Assembly: GCA_026745465.1 (NCBI GenBank) | Contig: JACYXH010000812.1 | Span: forward strand, 5,570,454 to 5,634,453 | From: Lota lota | Taxonomy: Eukaryota; Chordata; Actinopteri; Gadiformes; Lotidae | DNA: 64,000 bases | Direction: 5' to 3' | Shown here: positions 5,488 to 61,869 of the stretch, one piece after another | Layout of the letters: the number at the start of each line of letters is the position of its first letter | Position numbering within the stretch: position 1 is the first letter of the stretch | Program-made: the position numbers and the translations under genes | Notes under the pieces: generated by a model | Databases searched by the model: none | What the model was told of the DNA's origin: nothing | What the model saw: the letters and a program-made list of their open reading frames with translations, nothing else

Positions 5488-5824
5488 TGTAGCAAAGGTC
5501 CCTACTACACGCCACCTAGGTGGCTCCCATACTCCACCTAGGTGACTTTCCTCGGGCTCCTCCAAACAATTGGACACAGGGTGGTGATGTTGAAAACCGG
5601 TTTATTGTAAAAGTTGCATACGATGAGGCCGGCAGACGGTGCTCCGTGCTGCCATGCCGAAGAGCTCTCCTCGAGTGTGTGTGGTGGTGGCTGGTTTAAC
5701 CTGTGCACACTGATTGCTCAATGTGCAACAGGTGTGCAGCCCCACCCAGCCCCAGAGTCCAATCAGTCTGACTCAGGCCAGGTGAGGCTGCTTAAACCAG
5801 CCACCATCCACACACACTCCCACA
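5488..5824 (-). repeat. LTR, 3' copy (minus orientation)
   Basis: It begins TGTAGC and ends CCCACA on the plus strand and matches 6481-6817 over its full 337 bp by eye. It includes a CCACCTAGGTGG palindrome (5512-5523). Confidence 0.85.
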
Positions 5825-6480: not shown

Positions 6481-6817
6481 TGTAGCAAAGGTCCCTACTA
6501 CACGCCACCTAGGTGGCTCCCATACTCCACCTAGGTGACTTTCCTCGGGCTCCTCCAAACAATTGGACACAGGGTGGTGATGTTGAAAACCGGTTTATTG
6601 TAAAAGTTGCATACGATGAGGCCGGCAGACGGTGCTCCGTGCTGCCATGCCGAAGAGCTCTCCTCGAGTGTGTGTGGTGGTGGCTGGTTTAACCTGTGCA
6701 CACTGATTGCTCAATGTGCAACAGGTGTGCAGCCCCACCCAGCCCCAGAGTCCAATCAGTCTGACTCAGGCCAGGTGAGGCTGCTTAAACCAGCCACCAT
6801 CCACACACACTCCCACA
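6481..6817 (-). repeat. LTR, 5' copy (minus orientation)
   Basis: This is the upstream LTR in element orientation, next to the primer binding site. It appears identical to 5488-5824. Confidence 0.85.
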
Positions 6818-7651: not shown

Positions 7652-23460
<15,809 letters not shown>

Positions 23461-23687
23461 CGATGGAAAGGAAGCTACAGAGGGAAGGAGGAGAGCGACT
23501 TAGGAGAGTGAAAATGTCAAGCAATTCAGTTGAATTCTCGTCTTGCCATCAGTAGAAACCACCGCGGTTGCCAGACATCTTACGGTCCACTGTGTACAAT
23601 AACCCAGGTGTGCCTGAACTTTAAGATAACAGCAGTGACTTTTTATTTTCTTTCTTTCTCCTTTTTTTCTTGTGGAAACAAAAGTAT

Positions 23688-23695
23688 CAGTGTTA
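23688..23695 (+). promoter_or_regulatory. zeb1: miR-200a/141 seed match (8mer)
   Basis: CAGTGTTA, complementary to the miR-141/200a seed with A opposite position 1. The first of ten miR-200-family matches; it lies 6 bp before the first AATAAA, so even the shortest 3'UTR would keep it. Confidence 0.7.
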
Positions 23696-23700
23696 AACAA

Positions 23701-23706
23701 AATAAA
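23701..23706 (+). terminator. zeb1: Proximal poly(A) signal AATAAA (zeb1)
   Basis: Use of this hexamer would remove nine of the ten miR-200-family matches. Use is not shown by the sequence. Confidence 0.4.
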
Positions 23707-23869
23707 CTGTTTATAGAAGTTGGGATTACCAAACAATACTCATCAATGGATTTGTCAGAGTATATAGAGTTGAAGCGTTTTAGGCTATAATTTGTTACTG
23801 ACATCGCAAGGTTTTTATTGTGTTTGATATTGTTTTGTTTTGTTGTATTTCTTATTTCGTTCAATCCAT

Positions 23870-23877
23870 CAGTGTTA
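23870..23877 (+). promoter_or_regulatory. zeb1: miR-200a/141 seed match (8mer)
   Basis: CAGTGTTA in the zeb1 3'UTR. Confidence 0.7.
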
Positions 23878-23968
23878 CTAATCTTATTGCTAATGTTTGG
23901 AAACATTTGAACTTGTAAAAATAGGAAAGATTTCTATACCTTTTTATTGCCAATGAAGTTTGCTATAT

Positions 23969-23975
23969 CAGTATT
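23969..23975 (+). promoter_or_regulatory. zeb1: miR-200b/c/429 seed match (7mer-m8)
   Basis: CAGTATT followed by T in the zeb1 3'UTR. Confidence 0.7.
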
Positions 23976-24013
23976 TTATTGAGTTCTATGAACAAAAAAA
24001 AAAAACTGCACTA

Positions 24014-24020
24014 CAGTATT
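24014..24020 (+). promoter_or_regulatory. zeb1: miR-200b/c/429 seed match (7mer-m8)
   Basis: CAGTATT, 45 bp after the previous match, close enough for cooperative action as known for miRNA sites. Confidence 0.7.
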
Positions 24021-24067
24021 CCTGGTTTACCCACGGATACAACATGCCTCATGCATCGTCTGCCCTT

Positions 24068-24075
24068 CAGTGTTA
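24068..24075 (+). promoter_or_regulatory. zeb1: miR-200a/141 seed match (8mer)
   Basis: CAGTGTTA in the zeb1 3'UTR. Confidence 0.7.
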
Positions 24076-24199
24076 CTGACTGACACTAGCAAGACCCTCT
24101 TCTTTGTGTTAGCCTACGCTAGCGCGTCATGCTAGCGAGCATCATAACTGTTATTTTTTTCAGTTTGACTGTTAGCCTTAAGAGAAAAGCAGTTTTCTT

Positions 24200-24249
24200 G
24201 GGGGGGGGGGGGGGGGGGGTGGGGGGGGGGGGGGGGGGGGGGGGGGGGG
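24200..24249 (+). repeat. zeb1: Poly-G tract in zeb1 3'UTR
   Basis: Twenty G, one T, then 29 G on the mRNA strand. Strong potential for an RNA G-quadruplex, placed between two groups of miR-200 sites. Confidence 0.9.
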
Positions 24250-24639
24250 ATAATGAGGTAACTTCTGAATGCCATAACCAAATTTTTGTCCTTTCAGGGA
24301 AGGTAGAATCACAACCTTAAAAGCCAGCATTAGGCACCGAATTGTTATTTTGCAACCCAGTGAATTTGAATGGGGCTAAAGCCTTTACCTCCTCAAGGTA
24401 TAAATATATATACATATATGTAGTTGCCCTCTACACCTACTTGGCTTCGCAAAGGGTTATACATGTAGCTATTTCAACCAAGCTTCTTCTTGTTTTGGTT
24501 TTACTTTGAGTCTTTGTCCAGTTATTCATGTGTAAACGTAATTTGTGATTCCCAGCCCCACAATGCCTCCAGCCTTATGCAAGACCTGTGTGCTGTTAAA
24601 AGTGCCATTTGAAAAGTGTTATCATTTGTACAATGTAGT

Positions 24640-24647
24640 CAGTATTA
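24640..24647 (+). promoter_or_regulatory. zeb1: miR-200b/c/429 seed match (8mer)
   Basis: CAGTATTA in the zeb1 3'UTR. Confidence 0.7.
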
Positions 24648-24737
24648 TGTCCTCTGTTACTCAAGTCCCATATTGACTAATGTTTGTTGTTGACTTGCAT
24701 GGAGGACGCACACCTGAAGTCCATGTTTTCATCTTTG

Positions 24738-24745
24738 CAGTGTTA
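24738..24745 (+). promoter_or_regulatory. zeb1: miR-200a/141 seed match (8mer)
   Basis: CAGTGTTA in the zeb1 3'UTR. Confidence 0.7.
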
Positions 24746-25267
24746 GAAACATATGGCCTCTGAAAGTTAGGGCACTTTTTTTTACGTTTTGGGAGGGGAG
24801 GAGAGCAATGAGTTACAGAGTACAGAACATCACAAGTTGTGTTATTTACAGTTATAAAGTGATGTGATAGCTCTCAGTTAGAGGCCTAGTTCTCTTTTAT
24901 TTAGTGGTTTGTATGGTAGTTGGATAGAATTACGCATTTAACAGCAGCCTGAGACCATTTAAGTCCAACTGACTGGCTTTCTGAAACCCTTTCAAAAGCC
25001 TGTCGCCAATACATTTGCCGTTTGTCTCTCTAACCACGAAATTATTAGGTTTGATTTAACATTAACATTGTAAGTTGGAGAATGGTCAATGAGATGAGAT
25101 GAAATTAGCCAATTATAGACTAAATTCTATATAGAATACGACTGTAGAGACTGTGGGTTCATATCTTAATATGACCCACCACCCCCCCCCTCCCCTGGAC
25201 AAGTATGGTGGTCTTCACCATATCTAATGTGGCCTGCAATCTGCATGAGAAATCAACCCAGTATCGG

Positions 25268-25274
25268 CAGTATT
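25268..25274 (+). promoter_or_regulatory. zeb1: miR-200b/c/429 seed match (7mer-m8)
   Basis: CAGTATT followed by T in the zeb1 3'UTR. Confidence 0.65.
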
Positions 25275-25492
25275 TGATTACTATAGTACCATGAGGATTC
25301 AACCTCATGTAAGCATGTTCATAAGCGTGTGCCAGTGGAGTGCACTTTTTTTTTTTTTTTTACAGAATCAGACAGGAAATGGCAAGTTGTCCTGCACTTC
25401 AGGTAACAAACGTTAGTAAATGTGGTCCCTTTTTGTTCATTTTCAGGTTTGTTTATTTTTTTCTGTGTACTTGTTTTTTTGTTTTTACCGAA

Positions 25493-25499
25493 CAGTGTT
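25493..25499 (+). promoter_or_regulatory. zeb1: miR-200a/141 seed match (7mer-m8)
   Basis: CAGTGTT followed by C in the zeb1 3'UTR. Confidence 0.65.
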
Positions 25500-25579
25500 C
25501 TTAAGTTCTGTGTTCTTAGTTTGAAATAATTGTTTAGGTATGTCCTGTGTTTTACGTTCGTCTTTGTTTTTGACAATGG

Positions 25580-25587
25580 CAGTATTA
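25580..25587 (+). promoter_or_regulatory. zeb1: miR-200b/c/429 seed match (8mer)
   Basis: CAGTATTA in the distal zeb1 3'UTR. Confidence 0.7.
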
Positions 25588-25772
25588 GAGCCCTTTTCAC
25601 TGATGAAGTACCTGTTTAGTTACTAGAGGACTTTTTTATATTTATGTGTCTTATTTTTATATTTTCTTTTATGGTTATTTATTACACATTGTAGTGTACA
25701 ATACTGTAGTTTGAATTGATACAATAATATATTTTACTATGAAAAATAATCTGAAGAAGCAAACTTTGAAAA

Positions 25773-25784
25773 AATAAAAATAAA
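25773..25784 (+). terminator. zeb1: Tandem AATAAA poly(A) signals (zeb1)
   Basis: Two hexamers back to back (25773-25778, 25779-25784), followed by a TTGTTGTTCTGG-type region. They would retain all ten miR-200-family matches. Confidence 0.5.
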
Positions 25785-26272
25785 TCCCAAAATTGTTGTT
25801 CTGGGGACAAAAGTTTGTTACAATCCAACAAAATGTATTATGTAAACATAACTTGTTTTAAGCTATAAAAAACGAAGAAGAAGAAGGATGAAGTAAAACC
25901 ACGGGAATGATGATGTGTTACATGTGCATCCGCTTGTTGTCCCTGTTCGGGTCTGATCCTCGCATTGTTACCAAGCTACTGAATCCTACAGCTCTGTGAT
26001 TTTACTAACGCATGAGTCCTTGCCGTTGTATTGAAGGGTGTTGTGCTGAACATGTTACCTGTTGCTCCCTTTTGTTTTTTCAAAGCCAAATTTAGATTAA
26101 CCCCTCCCCAACTCACCCTTTTTTATGTCCCTGTTCTGTGCCAACTTTGTTCCATTGTTAACATGTGTTCAAAGGCTACATTTACGTTTGCCCTTAAAGA
26201 AACTTTGTACACTCACTGTCTTTTTTTGTATTGTTTTTATTTGTGGGCTGTTTTTTTATCACTCCCCATCAC

Positions 26273-26278
26273 AATAAA
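26273..26278 (+). terminator. zeb1: Distal poly(A) signal (zeb1)
   Basis: AATAAA followed within 40 bp by a TTTTCTTTCCT-rich stretch. It is the last good plus-strand hexamer before the convergent svil 3' end. Confidence 0.55.
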
Positions 26279-26295: not shown

Positions 26296-26814
26296 CTGAG
26301 CCATTTTCTTTCCTCCATGACTGTCAGATTTTACATAACGTCATCGGGTATACTGGCAGTCCTGTCTCTACTTCTAAATATACCACTACCCTACCTCTCT
26401 TACCTCGTATATCTCAATAGGGAGCGAAAGTATCAACTAACGCCTTCTAGTGGTAGCTTACCAGACAGTCACTTATCCGGCATGCTGCCCTAAATGGCAT
26501 ACAGACTAAAACTGTGGTCACTTAGCACCACCTATTGAACAAGGAAGTACTTGTAGTATGCTGTATACTGTATACTGTATGCTGTATACCTCAACGTTGA
26601 ATTTAATAAAGGTCCAAGTTACTTAACTTCAAATGTAAGACACATTACAATTATTATTATTTGCATATTCATTCCTCATAACATAATTTTTGTGATTCAT
26701 CACTAAAACAAAGAAGGTATTTCAGAAGTCTTCCCGTAGACTTACACAACACGCCATCGGTCATATGAGACAACCAGTAGAAAGAGACCAGTGGACGGTG
26801 GTTTGATTGATACG
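26296..26814. other. Intergenic gap between convergent genes
   Basis: About 0.5 kb between the predicted 3' ends of zeb1 and svil. It contains a short CTGTATA repeat (26558-26590) and no gene. Confidence 0.6.

Positions 26815-27686: not shown

Positions 27687-61869
<34,183 letters not shown>

What the first reader, a model, noticed from the sequence alone, without database searches (positions are those of the whole stretch)
23688..25587. Ten miR-200-family seed matches in the zeb1 3'UTR, five per subfamily
Seen: CAGTGTT(A) at 23688, 23870, 24068, 24738 and 25493; CAGTATT(A/T/C) at 23969, 24014, 24640, 25268 and 25580; six are full 8mers. Known: human ZEB1 is a classic miR-200 target with about eight sites in the same two classes. 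Inference: the ZEB1/miR-200 double-negative loop is retained and slightly strengthened here.
Basis: partly seen in the sequence, partly recalled or inferred. Interest (0 to 1): 0.75.

Follow-up and report, generated by a model that had tools for sequence, protein, structure and literature searches.

The report
miR-200 sites in fish zeb1 3'UTR
The tail of this fish's zeb1 messenger RNA carries about ten genuine-looking docking sites for the miR-200 microRNAs, much as published for zebrafish and mouse, so it is a solid but ordinary example of a well-known regulatory switch between epithelial and mesenchymal cell states.

Summary
In detail: all ten seed matches are at the stated places, six are 8mers; a weaker eleventh (7mer-A1) lies at 24614. 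Shuffles of this 3'UTR give 0.7 on average and never more than five in 5000. The gene is zeb1: one reading frame through seven exons to a stop at 23460; best protein match is an unnamed burbot (Lota lota) product, 99%. The same genome encodes miR-200b, miR-200a and miR-429, and ZEB-type boxes are in excess around that cluster, so both arms of the loop look present. A distal 3'UTR block (25636-25740) shared with two zeb2-type genes supports a long 3'UTR holding all ten sites. 'Slightly strengthened' is not supported: mouse has nine sites, zebrafish zeb1b ten, the sites are not unusually accessible, and no miR-200c/141 cluster was found here. No other fish's zeb1 3'UTR could be aligned, so orthology of single sites is untested. 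The loop is already published in zebrafish. Ordinary; interest low.

The parts
7652..23460 (+). zeb1 coding exons 7652-7858, 13625-13816, 15092-15294, 16003-16111, 16973-18810, 20298-20481, 22004-23460; TGA stop ends at 23460 (the first coding exon lies upstream of these and was not located)
   Evidence: acceptors AG in all seven, donors GT in the six internal ones, one open frame to the stop; best protein match an unnamed Lota lota product, 99%, then proteins mostly named zeb1 in other teleosts (best 120 of 1537 listed)
23461..25800 (+). 3'UTR to the probable main poly(A) site (AATAAA at 25773 and 25779); a further AATAAA at 26273 could extend it to about 26300
   Evidence: signals listed; conserved distal block directly upstream
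23688..23695 (+). miR-200a/141 8mer CAGTGTTA
23870..23877 (+). miR-200a/141 8mer CAGTGTTA
23969..23975 (+). miR-200b/c/429 7mer-m8 CAGTATT
24014..24020 (+). miR-200b/c/429 7mer-m8 CAGTATT
24068..24075 (+). miR-200a/141 8mer CAGTGTTA (strongest predicted duplex of the eleven, -23.2 kcal/mol)
24640..24647 (+). miR-200b/c/429 8mer CAGTATTA
24738..24745 (+). miR-200a/141 8mer CAGTGTTA
25268..25274 (+). miR-200b/c/429 7mer-m8 CAGTATT
25493..25499 (+). miR-200a/141 7mer-m8 CAGTGTT
25580..25587 (+). miR-200b/c/429 8mer CAGTATTA; 56 nt before the block shared with zeb2, where both zeb2-type genes also have a CAGTATTA about 70 nt before it
   Evidence: the alignment does not put them base on base
25636..25740 (+). 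distal 3'UTR block homologous to the 3'UTRs of two zeb2-type genes of the same genome
   Evidence: blastn E 3e-10 (C593, 76 columns, 78%) and 4e-9 (C837, 103 columns, 73%); none with C363
23701..23706 (+). proximal AATAAA that, if used, would leave only the first of ten sites

Best explanation
This is the miR-200 response region of a gadiform fish's zeb1 mRNA. miR-200a (site class CAGTGTT) and miR-200b/miR-429 (site class CAGTATT), made from one cluster in the same genome, pair through their seeds with about ten sites spread over a 3'UTR of about 2.3 kb and repress zeb1 additively in epithelial cells; Zeb1 protein in turn represses the miR-200 cluster through ZEB-type boxes upstream of it. Shown here: gene identity, the sites, their excess over chance, the miRNA genes with matching seeds, the excess of boxes. 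Inferred from zebrafish and mouse work: repression, additivity and the feedback.
For: Ten 7mers against 0.70 expected, six 8mers against 0.16; both words stand out without being chosen beforehand. zeb1 reading frame and protein relatives. mir-200b, mir-200a and mir-429 hairpins above the Rfam cut-off at C298:793219-795023, with mature sequences exactly those expected (miR-200a and -200b from printed morpholinos, miR-429 recalled) and hairpin folds. 23 ZEB-type hexamers in 9.9 kb around the cluster against 13.5 in 1000 shuffles (P 0.002) and 7 within 900 bp at 4.1-4.9 kb upstream (P 0.013); a review passage places the human promoter with its pair of ZEB-type E-boxes 4 kb upstream of miR-200b (PMC5575604). 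In zebrafish a reporter with the full zfhx1 3'UTR is reduced by miR-200 duplex (PMC2204047 section 12; PMC3696638 cites this work for zeb1b), and zeb1b overexpression lowers miR-141 and miR-200b (PMC3696638). Two zeb2-type genes of the same genome also have more CAGTATT than expected (6 against 0.27; 2 against 0.21, P 0.02).
Against: No expression data and no other fish zeb1 3'UTR to align. Over the eleven sites accessibility is, if anything, lower than elsewhere in the 3'UTR (mean rank 0.35 of 1); neighbouring sites are not closer together than random (P 0.49) and 3' pairing is weak at most sites. In zebrafish embryos knockdown of miR-200 left zeb1a and zeb1b mRNA unchanged at early segmentation, a stage at which the authors say miR-200s are weakly expressed (PMC3696638 passage). 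A proximal AATAAA at 23701 could give an mRNA with one site only. The box excess was tested after looking, and such boxes bind other factors too (general knowledge).
Confidence: 0.92

Rival explanations
1. Chance or compositional artefact: an A/T-rich 3'UTR gives seed matches without meaning.
For: An intronic 16-bp tandem array in the same window (10202-10414) reaches nine matches in about 200 nt by repetition alone, so raw counts can mislead.
Against: Dinucleotide shuffles give 0.70, maximum 5 in 5000; the matches are on the sense strand (10 against 1); flanks are unrelated to each other, unlike those of the array (mean identity 35 of 50); both related seed words are raised together, their neighbours are not.
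Confidence: 0.02
2. The sites are real but mostly not in the mRNA: the main transcript ends at the AATAAA at 23701, or alternative polyadenylation lets zeb1 escape miR-200 in some tissues.
For: A canonical signal 241 nt after the stop, just behind the first site.
Against: The block 25636-25740 is conserved against two zeb2-type genes, a split that I recall as dating to early vertebrates, and canonical signals with a GU-rich stretch behind them follow at 25773/25779. Usage itself was not measured.
Confidence: 0.07
3. The loop is strengthened in this species relative to other vertebrates.
For: Ten 7mer-m8 or better sites plus one 7mer-A1 against nine in mouse; five to six in the miR-200a class against four in mouse.
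Against: Zebrafish zeb1b was already credited with ten; counting methods differ; accessibility and pairing are not better than elsewhere in the 3'UTR; only one miR-200 cluster was found, against two in zebrafish.
Confidence: 0.12

Closest known systems
Mouse Zeb1 3'UTR with its miR-200 sites (Zeb1-200 mutant mouse; PMC6220299, PMC12802903)
   Same: Same gene, same two seed classes, similar number: nine, five of the miR-200b and four of the miR-200a class (passages).
   Different: Here five and five, plus one 7mer-A1 of the miR-200a class; which sites are orthologous was not testable.
Zebrafish zeb1b (and zeb1a) 3'UTR and the zebrafish Zeb1/miR-200 loop (PMC3696638, PMC2204047)
   Same: zeb1b has ten miR-200 elements by RNAhybrid; a reporter is repressed by miR-200; zeb1b lowers miR-141 and miR-200b.
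   Different: Zebrafish has two zeb1 genes (the other, zeb1a, with four elements) and two miR-200 clusters; here one zeb1 and one cluster (200b-a-429) were found. Whether the window's gene corresponds to zeb1a or zeb1b was not settled; UniRef names its medaka and killifish relatives zeb1a.
zeb2-type 3'UTRs of the same genome (C593, C837)
   Same: More CAGTATT than expected, shared distal block, a CAGTATTA just before that block.
   Different: Mostly the miR-200b class in zeb2 (in 2340 nt C593: 6 CAGTATT, 0 CAGTGTT; C837: 2 and 1), both classes equally in zeb1.

Membership tests
miR-200 target site cluster in a ZEB 3'UTR | Perfect 7mer or 8mer seed matches to miR-200a/141 and miR-200b/c/429 | tested here: met
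   ten 7mer-m8 or better, six of them 8mers
miR-200 target site cluster in a ZEB 3'UTR | More matches than chance, on the sense strand | tested here: met
   10 against 0.70; antisense 1
miR-200 target site cluster in a ZEB 3'UTR | Located in the 3'UTR of a ZEB gene | tested here: met
   open frame through seven exons to 23460; zeb1 relatives; 3' end inferred from signals and a conserved block, not measured
miR-200 target site cluster in a ZEB 3'UTR | Sites conserved between species | not testable with these tools
   G000 has no relatives here; one scan of viral contigs gave no zeb1; only a within-genome comparison with zeb2 was possible
ZEB1/miR-200 double-negative loop | miR-200 genes of both seed classes in the genome | tested here: met
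   mir-200b, mir-200a, mir-429
ZEB1/miR-200 double-negative loop | ZEB-binding boxes at the miR-200 promoter | tested here: inconclusive
   excess and a cluster 4.1-4.9 kb upstream, but promoter and binding are unknown here
ZEB1/miR-200 double-negative loop | miR-200 lowers Zeb1 and Zeb1 lowers miR-200 | not testable with these tools
   needs expression or reporter work; shown in zebrafish by others
ZEB1/miR-200 double-negative loop | Second cluster miR-200c-141, as in zebrafish (not essential to the loop) | tested here: not met
   no further Rfam match above the cut-off (65 of 51351 candidates scored; one more at 23 bits, below the cut-off of 47), no further exact match and only three further 2-mismatch matches, all with altered seeds; the assembly may be incomplete

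The most novel reading that the evidence does not exclude
In this cod-like lineage the switch has been simplified to one zeb1 gene and one miR-200 cluster (200b-a-429, with 200c-141 lost), and the 3'UTR makes up for the lost miRNA dose by carrying more and better sites, especially 8mers of the class whose second member, miR-141, is gone. The last site and the block behind it, shared with zeb2, would be the remnant of an array older than the ZEB1/ZEB2 split.
Probability: 0.1. Interest if true: 0.45.

Novelty: already known. Interest (0 to 1): 0.2.

Why it matters
It confirms from sequence alone, in a gadiform fish, that the parts of both arms of a classical vertebrate switch are in place in one genome, and gives exact coordinates for a reporter test. 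It does not change what is known: conserved miR-200 sites in zeb1 and a working loop in a teleost are already in print. The one open thread of some value is whether loss of the miR-200c-141 cluster and the site number in zeb1 are linked across fishes.

Tried and rejected
Tested and not supporting the reading (eleven sites): higher accessibility (mean rank 0.35, the opposite direction), clustering (3 of 10 gaps at 60 nt or less against 2.5 expected, P 0.49), strong 3' supplementary pairing (0 to 6 nt). Rfam on the window itself gave no match above cut-off. A search of solved structures with the last fingers gave 242 sequences; none of the 60 shown is named ZEB. Pfam gave only general zinc-finger families for the first 265 residues.

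I first took the C363 gene for the second zeb1 copy because of its acidic tail and two sites. A protein search (best 120 of 1301 listed) gave a cod-family protein named zeb1-like as best hit, but most others, gar and bowfin among them, named ZEB2 or ZEB2-like, and its ending resembles the gar protein P0235, not the zeb2-type genes. I therefore treat it as a probable third ZEB-type gene; no tree was made and gar's own zeb1 was not looked for. The C837 count of three sites was first made from a stop in another frame; with the stop at the conserved end, 163 nt further, the same three sites remain downstream. Searching viral contigs for another fish zeb1 gave one unrelated weak hit.

Paper searches: (one search was malformed and did not run). 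One search (zeb1, miR-200, burbot, any two of three) listed 5 of 6,960 papers, none of the five holding 'burbot'. I make no claim that the burbot sites are unpublished. Passages only were seen of PMC12802903, PMC3696638, PMC6784428, PMC5575604, PMC4159003 (nothing there on loss of miR-141 or miR-200c), PMC6220299; of PMC2204047 the outline with abstract and section 12 (38, 42). An earlier count gave the G tract as 18 and 30; the sequence shows 20 and 29.

Full report
What was claimed. Ten miR-200 seed matches, five per class, in a zeb1 3'UTR at 23688-25587, read as a retained and slightly strengthened ZEB1/miR-200 loop.

The sites. One 7mer-A1 match at 24614 was missed. In 23461-25800, 5000 dinucleotide shuffles gave a mean of 0.70 such 7mers and never more than five; 8mers: six against 0.16. 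Taken to the further signal near 26300 the mean is 0.83 and the maximum six. Ranking the 1911 distinct 7-mers of the stretch, homopolymer runs masked, puts CAGTATT first and CAGTGTT third under a first-order model, second and fifth under second order; CAGTGTTA is first of 2095 8-mers under both. Ten 7-mers occur five times or more: the two seed words, AGTGTTA, which overlaps one of them, three homopolymers and four T-rich words. The antisense strand of the same stretch has one match, and the rest of the window, without an intronic tandem array, 8 sense and 16 antisense in 60.9 kb. Flanks of the sites are no more alike than random places, in contrast to that array, a 16-bp unit at 10202-10414 that piles up nine matches by repetition.

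The gene. Seven exons with AG/GT junctions form one open frame from 7652 to a TGA ending at 23460. The protein is 99% identical to an unnamed product of Lota lota. Next come Lepidogalaxias and Merluccius (80% each), Coryphaenoides (73%) and many other teleosts, mostly with proteins named zeb1. The window therefore comes from burbot or a very close gadiform. Supervillin-like coding sequence ends tail to tail at about 27690 on the other strand (the name is recalled, from the headpiece motif).

Does the mRNA reach the sites? Signals lie at 23701, 25773, 25779 and 26273. The stretch 25636-25740 is homologous to the 3'UTRs of two zeb2-type genes of the same genome (C593, E 3e-10; C837, E 4e-9); C363 gave none. 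A block kept since zeb1 and zeb2 parted argues that the 3'UTR runs at least to there. All ten sites lie upstream of it. The last site, 25580, is 56 nt before the block; C593 and C837 each have a CAGTATTA about 70 nt before theirs. The alignment does not put these base on base, so this is a matching position, not shown orthology.

The miRNAs. An Rfam search of the genome found mir-200b, mir-200a and mir-429 in one cluster, C298:793219-795023; the mature parts are exactly the expected ones and fold as hairpins. Both seed classes are therefore available. The second cluster of zebrafish, miR-200c-141, was not found: no further Rfam match above the cut-off (65 of 51351 candidates scored; one at 23 bits, far below it), no exact match to the shared mature pattern elsewhere, and the three further two-mismatch matches have altered seeds (the reversed control pattern gave one). 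Assembly gaps are not excluded.

The other arm. In 9.9 kb around the cluster there are 23 ZEB-type hexamers against 13.5 in 1000 shuffles (P 0.002), with 7 in 900 bp between 4.9 and 4.1 kb upstream of mir-200b (P 0.013). Density is 2.3 per kb, against 1.1 in the window and 0.4 to 0.8 in four other stretches of the genome. A review passage places the human promoter, with its pair of ZEB-type E-boxes, 4 kb upstream (PMC5575604). This agrees, but was tested after looking.

Relatives in the same genome. In 2340 nt after the stop: window zeb1 10 against 0.83 expected, C593 (zeb2 type) 6 against 0.53, C837 (zeb2 type) 3 against 0.40, C363 2 against 0.63 (P 0.13) (for C837 the stop was later moved by 163 nt). 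C363 is probably a third ZEB-type gene with relatives in gar and bowfin, though its closest named relative, in a cod, is called zeb1-like. The genome search for zeb relatives scored 150 of 1460 candidates; no second ordinary zeb1 was seen.

How it works. Seeds of miR-200a and miR-200b/429 pair with the two site classes; several sites add up; Zeb1 represses the cluster in return. The pairing partners are shown here. The repression is inferred from zebrafish (reporter with the zfhx1 3'UTR; zeb1b lowers miR-141 and miR-200b) and mouse (mutating the nine sites derepresses Zeb1). Against a strong role everywhere: in zebrafish, miR-200 knockdown left zeb1a and zeb1b mRNA unchanged at early segmentation, when miR-200s are weakly expressed.

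Strengthened? Not supported. Mouse nine, zebrafish zeb1b ten, here ten. Sites are not more accessible than other places (mean rank 0.35), not clustered (P 0.49), and have little 3' pairing. On the miRNA side one cluster instead of two was found.

Verdict. A correct and well-supported observation of a known vertebrate circuit; the quantitative claim is unsupported; conservation of single sites among fishes remains to be tested.

Noticed in passing
window 10202-10414: Intronic 16-bp tandem array (unit TATAGTACCACAGTAT) holding nine miR-200 seed words by repetition; between coding exons, so not expected in mature mRNA.
   Followed up: yes
window 24200-24249: Run of 20 G, one T, then 29 G inside the 3'UTR; possible G-quadruplex, or a stretch of uncertain assembly length.
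   Followed up: no
window 22739-23258: 39-bp repeat, 13.6 copies, encoding a long Glu-rich tail of Zeb1; the Lota lota record P0001 lacks some stretches of this tail, so its length seems to vary.
   Followed up: partly
L011, L012, L014-L017 (G000 contigs C147, C551, C506, C538, C94, C440); also listed on C706, C712, C574 and others: Many copies, often about 500 or 1000 bp apart, of a cassette like the last zinc fingers and linker of zeb2 (KRPHQCQ..., DPDSCLSLK...), with varied finger residues: apparently a zeb2-derived zinc-finger array expansion (positions; translations of the named loci).
   Followed up: partly
L020, L023 (G000:C363, about 7561354-7564600): A probable third ZEB-type gene, compact, with relatives across ray-finned fishes including gar and bowfin, named ZEB1-like in a cod and mostly ZEB2 or ZEB2-like elsewhere.
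   Followed up: partly
G000 genome; cluster in L022: No miR-200c-141 cluster found beside the 200b-a-429 cluster; the 200b-200a gap is 204 bp here against 49 bp in zebrafish.
   Followed up: partly
L019 (G000:C837) bases 1-731: In this zeb2-type last exon the frame of the fingers and the frame of the conserved C-terminal end differ; a sequencing slip in a GGA-rich stretch or a disrupted gene.
   Followed up: no
window 5488-5787 and 6481-6780: Two identical 300-nt direct repeats 993 bp apart (reading one search suggests they run on some tens of bases): possibly a small, young, LTR-like element upstream of the exon at 7652.
   Followed up: partly
window about 27690-61000, minus strand: Supervillin-like gene tail to tail with zeb1, headpiece end at about 27690. 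A 310-aa frame at 59951-60883 looks like its N-terminal part (recalled), but Pfam gave only a sub-threshold Serglycin match for it.
   Followed up: partly
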